This document shows, piece after piece, positions 2,964-14,105 of a stretch of 14,105 nt of DNA. Both the position numbers and the translations under genes were made by a program. The DNA is from Actinomycetes bacterium (GTDB lineage Bacteria > Actinomycetota > CALGFH01), in assembly GCA_030152105.1 (NCBI GenBank), contig JASLIH010000047.1:1-14105 (forward strand), in the 5' to 3' direction. Below the pieces are notes generated by a model. The model had not been told where the DNA came from. It saw nothing but the letters and a program-made list of their open reading frames with translations, and ran no database searches. The first letter of the stretch is position 1. The number at the start of each line of letters is the position of its first letter.

Positions 2964-5900
2964 TCAGCGAACTGGGAACGCTCGGATCAGGGTCTGGTGG
3001 ATGCGGCTGTCGCCGGCGTCGCGGGCCCAGGTGCGGAGGCTGACCCAGGTGCCGGAGCGGAGGCGGGAGCCGGGGATCACGGCCCGGTAGTGGCCGGGGC
3101 CGACCTTGGCCAGGTGGACCAGGCGCCAGCTGCTCCCGTCGTCGGTCGAGAGCCACAGGGCGGTGGCGACCACCTCGCTCGGCTCGGCGCCCTCCTGGCG
3201 GGCCACGTTCAGGTCGACGGTGACGGGCTGGCCGGCGACGGCGCCGTTGCGGCCGCCGAGCGGGGCGGCCTGGTAGTCGACCCCCAGGAGCGGTGGCAGC
3301 CCGAAGTCGTCCTGGCCGGCCGGGGCCTCGGAGTTGAACCACCAGCGGGTCCGGGAGGCGTTGGCCAGGCGGGTCAGCCCGTCCATGTCCAGGTCGCGCT
3401 CCAGCCGGTAGCGGGCCCGGCCGGCCGGCACCGCAACCTGGAGGAACGGCTCCTGGGCGCTGGCCAGCAGCCGCCCGTGGCGGTACAGGCGCATGGCCTG
3501 GACGGCCACCGGGTCCTCGCTCCACTCCCACGGGTAGCCCTCGTGGCCGCCGGTGTCGCGCAGGTCGGCCACGCCGACGAACATCGAGTCGGCGCCGCGC
3601 TCTCCGTAGGCGTTGGCGTGCAGGGGCGCCCCGAACCACCACTCGTCGGTCTGCTGGGCGGGCTCGAACTGGACGAACGCCGGGCCGTAGAAGTCGATGA
3701 ACGCCTCCCCCCGGTACCAGACGGCGTCGTGCAGCCAGCTGATCGGCGCTGGGCTCACGTACTCGGCCCGGGTCCGGGGCACGGCGATCGACTCGTAGCT
3801 TCCCCCGGCGAAGAACTGGAGGGGCGCGAAGCCGACCCGCACGTCCTGGTACTCGGCGTTGTCGTTGAGGTTGCGGTAGTGGCTGCCGGTCCGGGCCAGC
3901 CGGGCCCGCTCGGCGGCGGACAGGACGTAGCTGGGCGGGTCCGGGACCTGGCCGCCGTACTGCAGCAGGTCGTACAGGGCTGGGGCGGTGGCGGCCGAGC
4001 CGGCGCCGGCCGGCAGCAGCCGCGTCCGCAGCTCCACCTCGAACTGGCCCACCCGGACCGGCTCGCCGGTCGGCTCGGCGAACAGCCCGCCGGACGCCAC
4101 CTCGGCGCCGACCGAGGAGCTGAAGGCGAGCCCGTAGCTGTCGGCGGCATCCACCCGGGTGAAGCCGACGTCGGCGAAGCTGGGGTGGGTCGCCACCCCC
4201 TCGATCCCGAGCGTGACCGGCTCGGCCCGGCGGGCGTCCAGGGCGAAGGTGGTCGCGCCGGTCACCCGGACCTCGGGGTCGCCGACCATCGAGAGCGACT
4301 CGAAGTCCGCGCCGGACACGAACCCCATGATGTGGTAGTGGCCCGGCGCGACCCTGATGGTGACCGTGGCGTCCTCGTCGAAGACCAGGAAGTCGGCGAA
4401 CAGCTCGCCGTTGTCGACGTTCAGGACCCCGGCGTCGGCGAAGGCGGCCGGCTGGCCGTCGCGGCCGATCGCCCTGATGGTCAGGTCGTAGCGCTCCGGC
4501 TCCTTGTAGAAGCCGAGCGGGGTCCGCACGGCCGGGCCGCTGGCCGGGGTGGCGGTCACCGCGCCGCTGTACAGCCCGGCCGCGCCCGCCTGCACGTCGA
4601 CGGTGACCTGGGCGGTGGCCTGGGCGCCGGCGGCCAGGGTGAGACGCGGCGGCGTCACCGTGACCATCCCGGCCGGGGCCGGGCTGTCGTCCTCGGTCTC
4701 CAGCTCGGCCCGCAGGTCGACAGTGGTCGGGCGGTCGCCCAGGTTCTGCAGCAGCAGCGGCCTGGTCACCGGCCGGACGCCGGTCTGCGGGTAGCGGAAG
4801 TAGCCGAAGTCGAGGTTGGCCCGGCGGGCGATCAGCCGCTGGCCGATGGCGTGGCCGACGTCCAGGCGGCCGCCGCCCTGGGAGTACACACTCGCCGAGG
4901 GGCTGGGGCTGGCCGTCCCCATCAGCACCGCCTTGATCCGGCCGGGGGTCCAGCTGGGCCAGCGCTGGGCCATGATGGCGGCCGCCCCGGCCACGTGCGG
5001 GGTGGCCATGGAGGTGCCGGTGGCGCGGGTGTACCACTGGCCGACCGGCTCGCCCAGGGCGGTCCCGGCGGCCCGGGCGGCGACGATGTCGACGCCGGGG
5101 GCGGTGATGTCGGGCTTCATCGCGTAGTCGCCGGAGCGCGGGCCCCGGCTGGAGAAGTCGGCCAGCTGGTCCTCGGCGTCGACGGCGCCGACGGTGAGGG
5201 CGGCGGTGGCCGCGCCGGGGGTCTCGACGGTCTGGCCGCCGGGGCCGGAGTTGCCGGCCGCGACCACGAACAGGGTCCGGTACTGGTTGGTCAGCCGGGT
5301 GACGGCCTGGCTCATCGGGTCGGTGCCGTCGGTCGGCCAGCCGCCGAGGCTCATGTTCACGACCCTGGCCCGCTGCCTGGCCGCCCACTCCATCCCGGCG
5401 ATGATCCCCGACTCGCTGCCGAAGCCGGAGTCGTCGAGCACCTTGCCGTTGAGCAGGCTGGCCTTGAAGGCCACGCCCTTGCGCTGGCCGGACGAGCGGG
5501 CGCCGGTGCCGGCCACGATCGAGGCCACGTGGGTGCCGTGGCCGTAGTGGTCGGTGACGGAGTCGGCCTCGGAGAAGTTGGCCTGAGCCACGACCTTGCC
5601 GCCGCTGAGGTCCGGGTGGGTGGTGTCGATGCCGGTGTCGAGCACGGCCACCTTCACGCCCTTGCCGGTCAGGCCGGCCGACCAGGCGGCCGGGGCGTTG
5701 ACCTGGGCCAGGTTGGGGTCGAGGTCGGTGGCCCGGAAGCGGCGGTCCAGCCAGACCCTGCGCACCCCGGCCAGGGCCCCGGTGGTCCGGGTGGCCGTGG
5801 CCGTCGTGCCGGCCAGGGCCGCGCCCAGCTTGGCCGCATCGGCCCGCGGCTGCCGCATGGCGGTGGCCCGCAGGCTGGACAGCTCGCGCACCGGGCGCAG

Positions 5901-6356
5901 CGAGGCCGCGGCCAGGGCCGGCGGCCGGCTGGCCGTCCGGCGCTGCACGATCAGGGGAAGGCTGGAGGACCTGGCGTCGCCGTAGCCCATCCGCTGGAGG
6001 GCCGAGACGTTGAACAGCTCCAGGTCGAGCAGGCGGCCGAGCAGGTGGTGGACGTCACCGGGGATCACGTGGACGTCGCCCCGGACGGAGACGGTCTGGA
6101 ACGACGGCCGGCCGCCGCGCCGCGGGGCCGCGACCACCTGCACCGACGTGCGGCCGCCGGGCCGCTGGCGCAGGAGCACCTTGTCGCCGGTGAGGAGGGT
6201 GACGGCGACGCCGCGCTCCTGGCCGGACCGGGCCAGCCTGGCGGCCCCGGCCGCCTGCGCGCCGGCCGTCCCCCCGGCCGGGCCGGGGGCGGTGACCAGC
6301 AGCGCGGCCACGGCGAGCAGGATGGCGAGTTGACGGGCGCGACGCTTGGCGGCCAT
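2964..6356 (-). CDS. Secreted subtilisin-like serine protease (peptidase family S8)
   Basis: The encoded preproprotein has 1,130 residues. The start at 6356 is chosen because the minus strand carries a strong GGAGGAGG Shine-Dalgarno just upstream and because it begins a textbook signal peptide: MAAKRRAR, a hydrophobic core LAILLAVAALLV, and an Ala-rich cleavage region near residues 33-36. An upstream in-frame start at 6455 would put 33 non-conserved residues before this. A propeptide (about 45-205, beginning VTLLTGDKVLL) is typical of large Streptomyces S8 proteases. The catalytic domain has all three triad residues: Asp240 in VAVLDTGID, His273 in GHGTHVAS and Ser449 in GTSMATPHVAG, plus the oxyanion Asn in VAAGNSGPGG. 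About 600 residues of beta-rich C-terminal sequence with Fn3-like character follow. It has no LPxTG motif or terminal membrane helix, so the protein is probably released. The exact substrate is unknown. It lies downstream of rsgA with a 126-bp gap. Confidence 0.93.
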   Translation of the reverse strand: MAAKRRARQLAILLAVAALLVTAPGPAGGTAGAQAAGAARLARSGQERGVAVTLLTGDKVLLRQRPGGRTSVQVVAAPRRGGRPSFQTVSVRGDVHVIPGDVHHLLGRLLDLELFNVSALQRMGYGDARSSSLPLIVQRRTASRPPALAAASLRPVRELSSLRATAMRQPRADAAKLGAALAGTTATATRTTGALAGVRRVWLDRRFRATDLDPNLAQVNAPAAWSAGLTGKGVKVAVLDTGIDTTHPDLSGGKVVAQANFSEADSVTDHYGHGTHVASIVAGTGARSSGQRKGVAFKASLLNGKVLDDSGFGSESGIIAGMEWAARQRARVVNMSLGGWPTDGTDPMSQAVTRLTNQYRTLFVVAAGNSGPGGQTVETPGAATAALTVGAVDAEDQLADFSSRGPRSGDYAMKPDITAPGVDIVAARAAGTALGEPVGQWYTRATGTSMATPHVAGAAAIMAQRWPSWTPGRIKAVLMGTASPSPSASVYSQGGGRLDVGHAIGQRLIARRANLDFGYFRYPQTGVRPVTRPLLLQNLGDRPTTVDLRAELETEDDSPAPAGMVTVTPPRLTLAAGAQATAQVTVDVQAGAAGLYSGAVTATPASGPAVRTPLGFYKEPERYDLTIRAIGRDGQPAAFADAGVLNVDNGELFADFLVFDEDATVTIRVAPGHYHIMGFVSGADFESLSMVGDPEVRVTGATTFALDARRAEPVTLGIEGVATHPSFADVGFTRVDAADSYGLAFSSSVGAEVASGGLFAEPTGEPVRVGQFEVELRTRLLPAGAGSAATAPALYDLLQYGGQVPDPPSYVLSAAERARLARTGSHYRNLNDNAEYQDVRVGFAPLQFFAGGSYESIAVPRTRAEYVSPAPISWLHDAVWYRGEAFIDFYGPAFVQFEPAQQTDEWWFGAPLHANAYGERGADSMFVGVADLRDTGGHEGYPWEWSEDPVAVQAMRLYRHGRLLASAQEPFLQVAVPAGRARYRLERDLDMDGLTRLANASRTRWWFNSEAPAGQDDFGLPPLLGVDYQAAPLGGRNGAVAGQPVTVDLNVARQEGAEPSEVVATALWLSTDDGSSWRLVHLAKVGPGHYRAVIPGSRLRSGTWVSLRTWARDAGDSRIHQTLIRAFPVR

Positions 6357-6424
6357 GGCTGCCTCCTCCGGCGGGCTTCGTCCCGTCGGGGAGATTCGCA
6401 CCGTACACACCTTGAGTCCAGGGT

Positions 6425-6438
6425 GCGGAGAACTCCGC
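6425..6438. promoter_or_regulatory. Perfect inverted repeat upstream of the protease
   Basis: GCGGAG, AA and CTCCGC form a 14-bp perfect palindrome with a 2-bp centre. It lies about 70 bp upstream of the protease start, between rsgA and the protease. The centre is too short for a good RNA hairpin loop, so a dimeric repressor operator is the more natural reading. A GC-rich genome produces such repeats by chance fairly often, so the function is uncertain. The rest of the gap holds the Shine-Dalgarno sequence at about 6361-6370 and no convincing promoter. Confidence 0.3.
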
Positions 6439-6482
6439 GTCCATCCTGTGACCATCGGTTCGGCGGGTCCGGGAGGATCTGC

Positions 6483-11580: not shown

Positions 11581-12662
11581 GTGGGACTGGTGTTCCTGGC
11601 GGTCCGGCCGGTGGGCGACGGGTCGGTCAAGCTGACCGCCAACCTGGCCCAGCTGCTGGCGCCGTCGCTGGCCGCGGTCAGCTGCGCCTGGGCGGCCGTC
11701 TCGGGGTCGGACGGCCGGACCCCGCCGGGCCTGGGCTCTGCTGGCCGCGTCGGCCGCCTGCTGGGCGGTCGGGCAGGCCACCTGGGTGTGGTACGAGCAC
11801 CTGGCCCGGCGCGACCTGCCCTTCCCATCGCTCGCCGACGTCGGCTACCTGGGGGCCATCCCGAGCTGGTCGCTGGTGCTCGGCCCGGTGTTCCGGGCTG
11901 GCGAGGGCAGCGTCCCGGAGCAGGCGATCGTGCTCGCCTACCCGGTCGGGGACGTGGTCCTGGCCACCATCGTGTTCGTGGTCGTGGCCAGGAGCCGGGT
12001 CGCCGGGGCCCCGGTCCTGCTGCTCGGGGCCGGCCTGCTCAGCCTGGCCGTTGCCGACACCAACTTCGCCTACCTCACCCAGGAGGGGGCCTACTCGACC
12101 GGGGCCCTGTCCGACGTCGGCTGGTTCGCCGGCTACCTACTGGTGGCGCGGCGGCCTGGAGCACCAGGCGTTCCACGACGGGCTCACCAGCCTGCCCAAC
12201 CGGGCCCTGTTCCGCGAACGGGTGGGCCACGCGCTGCGCCGCCGCTCCCAGGCCGGTACGCCCCTGGCCCTGCTCTTCATCGACCTGGACGACCTCAAGA
12301 CGGTCAACGACGAGCTCGGCCACGCGGCCGGCGACGACCTGCTGGTCGCGGTGGCCGGCCGGCTCCAGACCTGTGTGCGGGGCGAGGACACCGTGGCCCG
12401 CCTGGGCGGCGACGAGTTCGCCATCCTGCTCGAGCAGGCCCCCAGCCACGAGGTCGCGGTCCGGGTCGCCGGCCGCATCCTGGAGTCGATGGGGCCGCCG
12501 TTCCCCCTCCAGGGCCACCAGGTCCAGGTCGGGGCCAGCGTCGGCGTCACCGTGAGCCAGGCCGCCGACGTCGACGCCGTCCTGCGCGAGGCCGACGTGG
12601 CCATGTACACCGCCAAAGCCCGCGGCAAGGGCCGCTTCGAGATGACCGCCACCTCGGCCTAG
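11581..12662 (+). pseudogene. Broken membrane-bound diguanylate cyclase (GGDEF) gene
   Basis: Three successive reading frames each carry a piece of one recognisable protein. Frame 1, from about 11581 or GTG 11590, gives VKLTANLAQLLAPSLAAVSCAWAAVSGSDGRT. After the CCCC run at 11720-11723 the sense moves to frame 2, giving RRAWALLAASAACWAVGQAT and LADVGYLGAIP. This continues through hydrophobic segments to GWFAGYLLVARR. Around 12146-12156 it moves to frame 3, giving LEHQAFHDGLTSLPNRALF and a complete GGDEF domain ending at TAG 12660-12662. The domain keeps the catalytic GGDEF (12405-12419) and the inhibitory RxxD site RGED (12378-12389) five residues before it. At both breaks, dropping one C restores a smooth family-like reading. 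Compared with actinobacterial relatives as I remember them, about 50 residues also seem missing at GAIP/SWSLVLGP near 11861, and the linker before LEHQ is short. If intact, it would make cyclic di-GMP. Sequencing error could explain the indels but not an internal deletion. Confidence 0.75.
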
Positions 12663-12667
12663 ACGAC

Positions 12668-12690
12668 CTGACGGCCGCTCGGGCCGTCGG
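12668..12690 (+). terminator. Hairpin after the cyclase gene
   Basis: A 9-bp stem (CTGACGGCC with GGCCGTCGG, one G-T pair) closes the 5-base loop GCTCG directly after the GGDEF stop. There is no T tract. Position and strength fit a terminator isolating the cyclase gene from the ilv leader, but this is inferred from structure only. Confidence 0.45.
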
Positions 12691-12695
12691 CTGGC

Positions 12696-12725
12696 TTGAC
12701 AGGGTAGATACCATCCGAGAAACGT
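12696..12725 (+). promoter_or_regulatory. Putative promoter of the ilvB leader
   Basis: A perfect TTGACA -35 hexamer lies at 12696-12701. Eighteen bases later AAACGT (12720-12725) keeps only the A at position 2 and the T at position 6 of a -10 box, so the -10 is weak. Transcription would begin near 12732, about 20 bases before the leader peptide start. The -35 match and the position are the support. Confidence 0.4.
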
Positions 12726-12750
12726 AGCCGTTACCTGCGACAGGATCTTC

Positions 12751-12786
12751 ATGCCGCCCCGGATCACTCTGGTACTTATCGACTAG
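12751..12786 (+). CDS. ilvB leader peptide, MPPRITLVLID
   Basis: An 11-codon reading frame (ATG 12751, TAG 12784-12786) encodes MPPRITLVLID. Five of its codons 5-10 specify the branched-chain amino acids Ile, Leu, Val, Leu and Ile, and the sixth is Thr, the precursor of Ile. Codons ACT, GTA and CTT are rare in this GC-rich DNA, which would sharpen ribosome stalling. AGGA at 12742-12745 lies 5 bases before the ATG and can serve as Shine-Dalgarno. The stop codon abuts the first hairpin of the attenuator. Leader peptides of this kind precede ilvB in other actinobacteria such as Corynebacterium glutamicum. The peptide probably has no function of its own; its translation senses charged Ile-, Leu- and Val-tRNA. 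Confidence 0.85.
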   Translation: MPPRITLVLID

Positions 12787-12817
12787 CGCGGGACCGCCGC
12801 CATAGGCGGACCCGCGC
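12786..12817 (+). promoter_or_regulatory. Attenuator hairpin 1:2 (anti-antiterminator)
   Basis: GCGCGGG, A, CCGCC, loop GCCATA, GGCGG, A and CCCGCGC form a 12-bp stem with one A-A mismatch, starting at the last base of the leader stop codon. Bases 12801-12809 (CATAGGCGG) can instead pair with 12822-12830 (CCTCCTATG) at 8 of 9 positions, which forms an antiterminator. A ribosome stalled on the Ile/Leu/Val codons would cover the 5' arm and free this segment. A ribosome that finishes and leaves lets this hairpin form and favours termination. Confidence 0.8.
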
Positions 12818-12819
12818 GG

Positions 12820-12852
12820 AACCTCCTATGCCCTCGGGCAGGAGGTTTTTTT
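12820..12852 (+). terminator. Intrinsic terminator of the ilvB attenuator
   Basis: AACCTCC, bulge TA, TGCCC, loop TC, GGGCA and GGAGGTT form a 12-bp stem, followed by an unbroken run of seven T's (12846-12852, two of them in the stem). It is by far the best intrinsic terminator in the window. It lies 33 bases before the ilvB start codon and after a short leader, which marks it as an attenuator and not a gene-end terminator. Its 5' arm can be captured by 12801-12809 of the preceding hairpin. Confidence 0.88.
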
Positions 12853-12885
12853 CTTGCCCCGACCACCGCACCCCTGGGAGCAACC

Positions 12886-14105
12886 TTGAAGGTCACCGGC
12901 GCCCAATCGCTCATCCGCAGCCTGGAAGCCTGCGACGTCGACGTCATGTTCGGCCTTCCCGGCGGGGCCATCCTTCCCGCCTACGACCCGATCCGGGAGT
13001 CGTCGGTCCGGCACATCCTGGTCCGCCACGAGCAGGGCGCCGGCCACGCCGCCGAGGGCTACGCCTGGGCCACCGGCAAGGTCGGGGTGTGCATGGCGAC
13101 GAGCGGGCCGGGCGCGACCAACCTGGTCACCGCCCTGTGCGACGCCTACATGGACTCGGTGCCGCTGGTGGCCATCACCGGCCAGGTGCCGAGCTGGGCG
13201 ATCGGCTCCGACGCCTTCCAGGAGGCCGACACCACCGGCATCACCATGCCCGTCACCAAGCACAACGAGCTGGTGCTTGACATCGACCGCATCCCCGGCG
13301 CGGTGGCCGAGGCGTTCCACATCGCCGCCTCCGGCCGCCCCGGCCCGGTCCTGGTCGACGTGCCCAAGGACATCCTCCAGGCCACCACCGAGTGGAGCTG
13401 GCCGTCCACCACCGAGCTGCCCGGCTACCGGCCGGTGACCCGGCCCAACGGCAAGCGGGTCCGGGAGGCGGCGGCCCTGCTGCGGGAGTCCCGCCGGCCG
13501 GTGCTGTACGTCGGCGGCGGCGTGACCAAGGCCGGGGCCGAGGCCGCCCTGCGGGAGCTGGCCGAGGCCTGCGGGGCCCCGGTCACCACCACCCTGATGG
13601 CCCGGGGGGCCTTCCCCGACAGCCACCCCCTGGCCCTCGGCATGCCGGGCATGCACGGCAACTACGCCGCCGTGGCCGCCCTCCAGGAGGCCGACCTGCT
13701 GGTCGCCCTCGGGGCCCGCTTCGACGACCGGGTCACCGGCAACCTGGCCACCTTCGCCCCCAAGGCCAGGATCGTCCACGCCGACATCGACCCGGCCGAG
13801 ATCGGCAAGAACCGCGTCGCCGACGTGCCCATCGTCGGCGATGTCAGGCTGGTGGTCGAGGAGCTGGCGTCGGCCTACCGGGCGGCGGTGGCCGCCGAGG
13901 GGGCCGGCGACACCGAGGCCTGGCAGGGGGCCTGCGCCCAGTGGAAGCAGCGCTTCCCGTTCCGCTACGACCAGCAGGAGGGCGGCCCGCTCAAGCCCCA
14001 GCACGTGGTCGAGCGGGTGTCGGCCCTCACCGGCGGCGAGGCGGTGGTGGTCGCCGGGGTCGGCCAGCACCAGATGTACGCCGCCCAGCACTTCCGCTTC
14101 GACCG
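12886..14105 (+). CDS. ilvB: Acetolactate synthase large (catalytic) subunit, 5' part
   Basis: The frame is open to the window end and gives 406 residues of a protein usually near 600. It starts at TTG 12886: GGGAG at 12876-12880 lies 5 bases upstream, homology begins there ([20 protein letters not shown]) and no in-frame ATG is available. The N-terminal ThDP-binding (PYR) domain has [10 protein letters not shown] (22-31), catalytic Glu49 in [15 protein letters not shown], and [13 protein letters not shown]. The [16 protein letters not shown] segment and [11 protein letters not shown] are also typical. The central FAD domain follows ([40 protein letters not shown]). The second ThDP domain begins at [10 protein letters not shown] where the window stops. 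IlvB condenses two pyruvates, or pyruvate and 2-oxobutyrate, in valine, leucine and isoleucine synthesis, with IlvN as regulatory partner. ilvN and ilvC are expected just downstream. Expression is probably set by the leader attenuator. Confidence 0.96.

What the first reader, a model, noticed from the sequence alone, without database searches (positions are those of the whole stretch)
12751..12852. Complete leader-peptide transcription attenuator in front of ilvB
An 11-codon peptide with Ile, Leu, Val, Leu and Ile among codons 5-10 is followed at once by a hairpin (12786-12817). A terminator with a T7 tract follows (12820-12852). Segment 12801-12809 (CATAGGCGG) pairs with terminator arm 12822-12830 (CCTCCTATG) at 8 of 9 positions, so the three segments can form mutually exclusive structures. 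Ribosome stalling at the regulatory codons would free the antiterminator. The mechanism class is known for ilv operons, but this instance is short and would be missed by gene callers.
Basis: partly seen in the sequence, partly recalled or inferred. Interest (0 to 1): 0.75.

Follow-up and report, generated by a model that had tools for sequence, protein, structure and literature searches.

The report
Leader-peptide attenuator before acetolactate synthase gene
A short peptide gene and two back-to-back RNA hairpins in front of an actinobacterial amino-acid gene form a starvation-sensing transcription switch of a kind already known in these bacteria, although the way its first hairpin works is probably not the one first proposed.

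Summary
In detail: the 11-codon uORF (MPPRITLVLID), hairpin H1 (12786-12817), terminator T with a U7 tract and the 8-of-9 pairing are all present. A script found the same layout before ilvB in 103 of 109 unique upstream regions of relatives (window included). In 43 non-redundant leaders H1 starts most often 7 nt after the first base of the last Ile/Leu/Val codon (28 of 43 within 6-8 nt) and ends -3 to +2 nt from T in 42. H1 and T covary. This is a new member of the known actinobacterial ilvB leader-peptide attenuators.

The proposed 2:3 antiterminator is not supported. It is hardly conserved, native partners are no more complementary than swapped ones, and folding predicts it mainly with the ribosome at the stop codon, not stalled at codons 7-9. 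H1, just ahead of the stalled ribosome and abutting T, is the likelier antiterminator, as modelled in Corynebacterium and M. tuberculosis. How it blocks T is unproven.

In passing: paralogous elements precede leuS with Leu codon runs and citramalate synthase cimA with Ile runs. This codon tracking supports ribosome sensing. Four literature searches listed no paper on the cimA leader.

The parts
12696..12701 (+). TTGACA, candidate -35 box of the leader promoter
   Evidence: Sequence. TTGAC lies within 75 nt upstream of the uORF start in 36 of 43 non-redundant ilvB leaders, the window included (1.9 expected). The consensus scan found no full sigma-70 promoter, so the -10 box is not assigned.
12742..12745 (+). 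AGGA, candidate Shine-Dalgarno of the uORF, 5 nt before ATG
   Evidence: Sequence; inference.
12751..12786 (+). uORF: MPPRITLVLID, stop TAG
   Evidence: Sequence. Equivalent uORFs end LVLIT or VLLIT in the nearest relatives found (L086, L001, L085, L087).
12769..12780 (+). Regulatory run Leu7-Val8-Leu9-Ile10 (CTG GTA CTT ATC)
   Evidence: I/L/V codons at offsets 0, -3, -6 and -9 from the last regulatory codon in 43, 43, 40 and 33 of 43 leaders (offsets 0 and -3 were a condition of the parser).
12786..12817 (+). Hairpin H1 (GC-rich base GCGCGGG:CCCGCGC), proposed antiterminator
   Evidence: Folds. H1 base columns paired in 98% of cells with two-sided changes at 4 of 6 pairs.
12820..12852 (+). 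Terminator hairpin T (stem 12820-12847) with T7 tract 12846-12852
   Evidence: Folds. T columns 91.3% paired with 3 of 4 pairs showing two-sided change. Starts 2 nt after H1 ends, or 0 nt if G12818 and G12819 pair with U.
12801..12809 (+).
   Evidence: Present, but hardly conserved.
12822..12830 (+).
   Evidence: Present, but hardly conserved as partner of segment 2.
12876..12880 (+). GGGAG, candidate Shine-Dalgarno of ilvB
   Evidence: Sequence; inference.
12886..14105 (+). ilvB, acetolactate synthase large subunit, TTG start, cut by the window end
   Evidence: Above the TIGR00118 cut-off, 548.8 against 538.35 bits, for the part in the window; TPP_enzyme_N and TPP_enzyme_M. The start lines up by eye with the GTG start of L001.

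Best explanation
A ribosome-sensing transcription attenuator for the ilvB transcript, belonging to the actinobacterial ilvB leader family. A ribosome translates the 11-codon uORF behind RNA polymerase. When branched-chain aminoacyl-tRNAs are plentiful it runs through Leu-Val-Leu-Ile to the stop codon, its leading edge opens the 5' arm of H1, T forms and transcription ends at about 12850. When they are scarce it stalls on the run. At Leu7 and Val8 it leaves H1 intact and at Leu9 largely so. Intact H1, which abuts T, acts as the antiterminator and ilvB is transcribed. Shown here: the parts, their conservation and covariation, the codon-to-H1 spacing and the H1-T abutment. Shown elsewhere for related leaders: codon-dependent control. 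Inferred: the direction of control in this organism, and that H1 hinders T (perhaps sterically, because the two helices have almost no linker).
For: Layout in 103 of 109 unique regions, five of the other six by eye or by an earlier parser. Among 43 non-redundant leaders the H1-T gap is -3 to +2 in 42 of 43 with no gap penalty in the search, against 25% in shuffles, while H1 loops run from 4 to 48 nt. Codon-to-H1 spacing peaks at 7 nt (14 of 43 without penalty). H1 and T covary. On transcripts ending before the T 3' arm, with the ribosome at offsets -9, -6, -3, 0 and +3 from the last regulatory codon, mean H1 pairing is 0.95, 0.87, 0.62, 0.22 and 0.03, so H1 survives stalls at most regulatory codons and is lost once the ribosome passes. 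Codon runs follow the product: ilvB I/L/V 29/68/67, cimA 50/24/6, leuS 1/52/1. Published passages: M. tuberculosis ilvB1 LVVI-to-AAAA gives low, dose-independent expression, and a ~120-nt terminated transcript exists (PMC13236596); C. glutamicum Val-to-Ala loses the valine response and the hairpin next to T is the antiterminator (PMC11857589).
Against: In full-length folds H1 and T coexist (H1 0.94, T 0.95 at offset -12), so base-pair competition does not explain exclusivity, and no shared boundary triplet like that of C. glutamicum was seen in the window. At the last codon (Ile10) the ribosome already opens most of the H1 base (0.19 left). Seliverstov et al. report that codon substitutions in the S. 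coelicolor ilvB leader had no effect on regulation (PMC1262725). No expression data exist for this organism, and no whole genome is held for it.
Confidence: 0.55

Rival explanations
1. Classical three-segment attenuator: stalling opens H1, 12801-12809 pairs with 12822-12830, and T cannot form.
For: The pairing exists (8 of 9; -9.1 kcal/mol) and the stretches around it pair somewhat better than chance (P 0.03-0.08). It forms before T is complete once H1 is opened to 12796. The AU bulge in the T 5' arm lies inside it. On the alignment its cells paired and covariation score lie slightly above shuffles (46 and 39 of 500 reach them). Comparable best duplexes exist in some near relatives, for example L088 at -10.6 and L007 at -9.5 kcal/mol.
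Against: Only 42.5% of cells pair on 43 leaders. Native partners weaker than swapped, also in cimA (z +2.2) and not stronger in leuS (z +0.8). As low as -5.2 kcal/mol in L091 and L093. Needs a ribosome past Ile10; the stop codon favours it most.
Confidence: 0.17
2. H1 is mainly an RNA polymerase pause or synchronisation hairpin, and read-through under starvation depends on ribosome-polymerase kinetics rather than on a defined antiterminator.
For: No tested upstream segment is co-adapted to either T arm, while H1 and its spacing are conserved.
Against: A pause role alone does not explain why H1 ends within about 3 nt of T; the C. glutamicum study assigns the hairpin next to T as antiterminator (PMC11857589 passages).
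Confidence: 0.15
3. An addition rather than a replacement: the uORF region pairs with the 3' half of H1 when no ribosome is present, as an anti-antiterminator that keeps the gene off without translation (compare hairpin H1/AAT of C. glutamicum).
For: uORF x H1-3'-half complementarity exceeds swapped partners, z -3.7 to -3.8; in the window 12754-12758 CCGCC can pair with 12805-12809 GGCGG.
Against: Without the last 4 nt z falls to -2.5, and against the last 10 nt of H1 to -1.2. In the window without a ribosome H1 stays formed at 0.99.
Confidence: 0.2
4. The uORF does not sense amino acids here; T is a constitutive or otherwise regulated partial terminator.
For: S. coelicolor ilvB codon substitutions had no effect, as reported in PMC1262725.
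Against: Codon identity tracks the controlled gene in ilvB, cimA and leuS leaders; positive results in M. tuberculosis and C. glutamicum.
Confidence: 0.08

Closest known systems
Actinobacterial ilvB leaders (Seliverstov et al. 2005, PMC1262725; S. lividans ilvL MRTRILVLGKRVG, PMC8079986 Table 4)
   Same: Short uORF with an I/L/V run, hairpins, intrinsic terminator with U-rich tract, then ilvB. The S. lividans peptide is identical to that of many Streptomyces leaders parsed here.
   Different: In the window the stop codon sits at the foot of H1 (as in 26 of 103 parsed leaders) rather than further inside it as in the Streptomyces leaders. The candidate -35 is 55 nt upstream of the uORF start; 29 of the 36 leaders with TTGAC have it at -35 to -39 and 7, the window included, at -44 to -55. 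So the window's uORF appears to have a short SD-bearing leader, where the S. lividans one is described as leaderless.
M. tuberculosis ilvB1 attenuator (PMC13236596)
   Same: BCAA uORF (LVVI), a terminator in the leader, leader RNA of about 120 nt there; a similar length would follow here if transcription starts near 12730 (inference).
   Different: Experimentally tested there. The published antiterminator drawing was not available as a figure, so base-level homology was not compared.
Corynebacterium ilvB-II motif / C. glutamicum three-hairpin attenuator (PMC10272879, PMC11857589)
   Same: BCAA uORF; hairpin between the control codons and T; T with U tract.
   Different: There the antiterminator and T share bases (a GCC triplet, or the T 3' shoulder with the P1 loop). 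Here H1 and T abut without clear overlap.
E. coli trp-type three-segment attenuator (recalled)
   Same: Leader peptide with control codons, terminator, alternative pairings possible.
   Different: The 2:3 helix is hardly conserved, and the stop-codon ribosome does not cover segment 2.

Membership tests
Actinobacterial ilvB leader-peptide attenuator | uORF with a run of Ile/Leu/Val codons directly upstream of ilvB | tested here: met
Actinobacterial ilvB leader-peptide attenuator | Intrinsic terminator with poly-U between uORF and ilvB | tested here: met
   The simple consensus scan listed none, probably because the bulge in the T 5' arm breaks its stem rule.
Actinobacterial ilvB leader-peptide attenuator | Hairpin at near-fixed distance from the last control codon and abutting the terminator | tested here: met
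   H1 starts 8 nt after the first base of Ile10 (G12786; A12785, the +7 position, is unpaired here); gap 0-2 to T. This feature is defined here.
Actinobacterial ilvB leader-peptide attenuator | Expression depends on translation of the control codons | not testable with these tools
   Needs a reporter.
Classical three-segment (trp-type) attenuator | Conserved antiterminator helix between segment 2 and the terminator 5' arm | tested here: not met
   The closest kin (IlvB above about 76%) could not be read.
Classical three-segment (trp-type) attenuator | Ribosome stalled at control codons opens the first hairpin; ribosome at the stop covers segment 2 | tested here: not met
   Begins to open only at Leu9-Ile10; at the stop the leading edge (12796) leaves segment 2 (12801-12809) free.
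Two-hairpin antiterminator/terminator (C. glutamicum type) | Hairpin downstream of control codons intact when stalled, opened when the ribosome reaches the stop | tested here: met
   By folding only: H1 1.00 at -6, 0.71 at -3, 0.19 at 0, 0.00 at +3 and +6 in the window.
Two-hairpin antiterminator/terminator (C. glutamicum type) | Antiterminator and terminator mutually exclusive by shared bases | tested here: not met
   H1 and T coexist in full-length folds.
Rfam families, including any riboswitch, T-box or ilvB motif held there | Covariance-model match at gathering score | tested here: not met
   0 matches in the window; two sub-threshold matches in 12650-12900, both on the other strand.

The most novel reading that the evidence does not exclude
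A modular actinobacterial attenuator scaffold, reused before ilvB (I/L/V codons), cimA (Ile) and leuS (Leu), in which the antiterminator does not compete with the terminator for bases at all. Instead a very stable GC hairpin docked with almost no linker against the terminator physically keeps it from closing, and a ribosome that clears the control codons removes that block.
Probability: 0.22. Interest if true: 0.68.

Novelty: new member of a known kind. Interest (0 to 1): 0.4.

Why it matters
The window's element is an ordinary member of a known class. What the comparison adds is a sharp, testable problem. In the relatives examined the parts that selection keeps are the control codons, their distance to H1, H1 itself and its abutment to T, and not a terminator-sequestering helix. 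If that holds, textbook base-pair competition is not how these attenuators work. The cimA leader, with Ile codons, also extends the family to the committed step of isoleucine synthesis by the citramalate route (pathway role recalled).

Tried and rejected
Sequestering antiterminators of four kinds were tested by partner swapping on 42 leaders (L032 dropped): uORF x T5, uORF x T3, H1-3'-half x T5, H1-3'-half x T3. None exceeded swapped partners (z +1.3 to +2.7). In no-ribosome folds the T 5' arm pairs with upstream sequence at 0.44, but shuffled uORFs give 0.47, so that pairing is no more than chance (42 leaders). For stalls at the last codon, native sequestration is 0.26 against 0.38 for shuffled H1 remainders.

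Extension of H1 into T (the C. glutamicum shared-triplet model): with about 0-6 nt of flank exposed the T 5' arm is hardly paired upstream (0.05-0.17), so this was not adopted.

Promoter and terminator consensus scans found nothing. Rfam gave nothing. A Pfam query on window:11786-12661 was in the wrong frame and was repeated in frame. Alignment A2 used wrong L001 coordinates and is not used. In alignment A1 the row L013 is plainly misaligned at H1; it was left in the counts.

Limits and dropped rows: L092 (misparsed H1) was dropped before the 43-leader set was made; L032 (uORF parse doubtful), but it is and the alignment; L055 gave no run and was left out of the tally, so 41 of 42 were counted. 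Six of 109 regions were not parsed: L003, L005, L009 and L042 show the element by eye (L003 and L005 with only a T3 run), L058 had been parsed, and L019 has only 23 nt upstream. The parser penalised the H1-T gap and spacing and required two I/L/V codons; the unpenalised gap test is. H1 and T arms were chosen for pairing by the parser, so their swap z-scores are positive controls, not independent proof. On the alignment, sliding by +2 also gives 82.3% paired cells because of the GCGCGC repeats, but only 2 cells with two-sided change against 32. Relatives closer than about 76% in IlvB were seen only as proteins, so the 2:3 helix could not be checked in the very closest kin. In the cimA tally two of 26 leaders (L168, L183) were given a Leu frame by the script; by eye both carry ATT ATT in another frame. 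The leuS tally left out L213 of 19.

Full report
What is there. Between a diguanylate cyclase gene ending at 12662 (GGDEF) and ilvB starting at TTG 12886 (TIGR00118) lies a leader of about 220 bases. It holds a candidate -35 box, an 11-codon uORF, hairpin H1 (12786-12817), terminator T (12820-12852) and a Shine-Dalgarno site. All coordinates in the finding hold, and the 8-of-9 pairing exists.

Is it real. The best 80 loci kept from the named-genome collection encode IlvB at 63-74% identity (a capped list); a search of 149 unnamed relatives' genomes reached 75% (best 30 loci returned). After removal of duplicates 109 upstream regions remained, the window included. A script that looked for terminator, abutting stem and I/L/V run parsed 103 of 109. 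Of the six others, four show the element by eye (two with only a T3 run), one had been parsed, and one lacks upstream DNA. Thinned to 43 non-redundant leaders, the peptides differ widely, but the layout does not. H1 starts 7 nt after the first base of the last control codon as the mode (14 of 43, and 28 of 43 within 6-8 nt, without penalty). H1 ends within -3 to +2 nt of T in 42 of 43 in that search, against 25% for shuffles. On the MAFFT alignment H1 base and T pair in 90.5% of cells, 8 of 11 pairs have two-sided changes, and all five measures exceed all 500 shuffles. RNAalifold predicts the same two helices. TTGAC lies upstream of the uORF in 36 of 43, in 29 of these at -35 to -39, which fits near-leaderless uORFs. 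In the window it is at -55 with an AGGA before the ATG; six others lie at -44 to -51.

How it could work. I asked what a ribosome with its leading edge 12 nt beyond the first A-site base would do to a transcript that ends before the T 3' arm. Averaged over 43 leaders the H1 pairs are formed at 0.95, 0.87 and 0.62 for stalls 9, 6 and 3 nt before the last control codon, 0.22 at that codon and 0.03 beyond it. Of the 43 leaders 33, 40 and 43 carry I/L/V at -9, -6 and -3. So most starvation stalls leave H1 largely intact, and completion of the peptide destroys it. If starvation is to raise expression, H1 must oppose T. This is the published assignment in C. glutamicum (antiterminator next to T, PMC11857589, passages) and, in outline, in M. 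tuberculosis (PMC13236596, passages).

On the alignment its columns pair in 42.5% of cells (shuffles 39.9 +/- 1.8, 46 of 500 as high; slid versions 32-40%; covariation score reached by 39 of 500), a slight excess at most. By partner swapping, H1-3'-half x T-5'-arm is weaker than with chance partners (z +2.7) and the three other possible sequesterings are not stronger either, while the positive controls, H1 arms and T arms, give z -18 and -11.7 (the arms were picked for pairing). The result repeats in cimA and leuS leaders (z +2.2, +0.8). In the window itself 2:3 has probability 0.00 at Leu7 and Val8, 0.00-0.23 at Leu9, 0.00-0.26 at Ile10 for leading edges of 11-15 nt, 0.83 at 16, and 0.83-1.00 at the stop codon. 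In ten near relatives the best such duplex ranges from -5.2 to -10.6 kcal/mol, against -10.9 in the window. I conclude that 2:3 is probably incidental, while noting that very close kin could not be read.

What remains open. H1 and T coexist in full-length folds, so exclusivity is not base-pair competition as far as nearest-neighbour folding shows. The tight abutment suggests a steric block; this is inference. The uORF is more complementary to the 3' half of H1 than swapped partners are (z -3.7 to -3.8), which may be an anti-antiterminator for the untranslated state. In the window, however, H1 wins (0.99).

The wider family. A covariance model from the 43 leaders matched 142 of 149 relatives' genomes at E <= 0.01, many of them twice; genomes that supplied training leaders are among them. 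Of the 22 further loci fetched showed the citramalate-synthase motif in the longest downstream frame. Of the remaining six, L115 gives it in another frame, L152 and L153 lie at CimA places, L160 starts an IlvB-like protein by eye, and L159 and L161 were not assigned. One CimA and one LeuS were named by NCBIfam (TIGR00977, TIGR00396). Taking the 30 best loci that each protein search returned, the element was parsed before 26 of 30 cimA and 19 of 30 leuS genes (one leuS locus had only 194 nt upstream). Codon runs differ sharply: ilvB (41 of 42 leaders) I 29, L 68, V 67; cimA (26) I 50, L 24, V 6; leuS (18 of 19) I 1, L 52, V 1 (chi-square 2e-26, but the rows are related, so it is not a true probability). 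This is independent evidence that the codons are read.

Against known work. ilvB and leuS leaders in actinobacteria are in print (PMC1262725, parts 1-2 of 3 of the text read; PMC8079986, passages), as are the Corynebacterium ilvB-II motif (PMC10272879, abstract, part 1 of section 10, and section 14) and the M. tuberculosis case. PMC1262725 also records that S. coelicolor ilvB codon changes had no effect, which stands against my reading. For a cimA leader, four searches were made; I saw listings of 20 of 65, 14 of 14, 15 of 29 and 15 of 42 papers, and none is on it by title or abstract start. cimA and citramalate do not occur in the main text of PMC8079986, nor cimA in PMC13236596. Only open-licence papers are searched, so this is not proof of novelty. 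PMC2965389 was checked by passages. Other papers were seen as listings only.

Verdict. A real, conserved attenuator; a new member of a known kind; the mechanism class is right and the proposed antiterminator probably wrong.

Noticed in passing
L162-L191 (30 cimA loci; element parsed in 26), also L114 and L116-L121: A paralogous leader with an Ile codon run, H1, abutting terminator and U run precedes citramalate synthase (cimA) in many of the relatives examined; no paper on it in the listings of four literature searches.
   Followed up: partly
L192-L221 (30 leuS loci; element parsed in 19), also L134, L135, L141: A paralogous leader with Leu-Leu-Leu codons precedes leuS in several near relatives; leuS leaders are known from Streptomyces.
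   Followed up: partly
43 ilvB leaders (42 tested): The uORF region is more complementary to the 3' half of H1 than swapped partners are (z -3.7 to -3.8), a possible anti-antiterminator.
   Followed up: partly
ilvB leaders, 36 of 43: A TTGAC -35 box, in 29 of these 35-39 nt upstream of the uORF start, suggests leaderless uORFs in much of the family, unlike the window (-55).
   Followed up: partly
window 11646-12662: GGDEF diguanylate cyclase gene directly upstream on the same strand.
   Followed up: no
window 2964-6455: Large subtilase (Peptidase_S8, 1163 aa, minus strand), secreted-looking by eye.
   Followed up: no
L021: A record titled Proteobacteria bacterium carries a typical actinomycete ilvB leader and an IlvB 67% identical to the window's; the bin may be mislabelled or mixed.
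   Followed up: no
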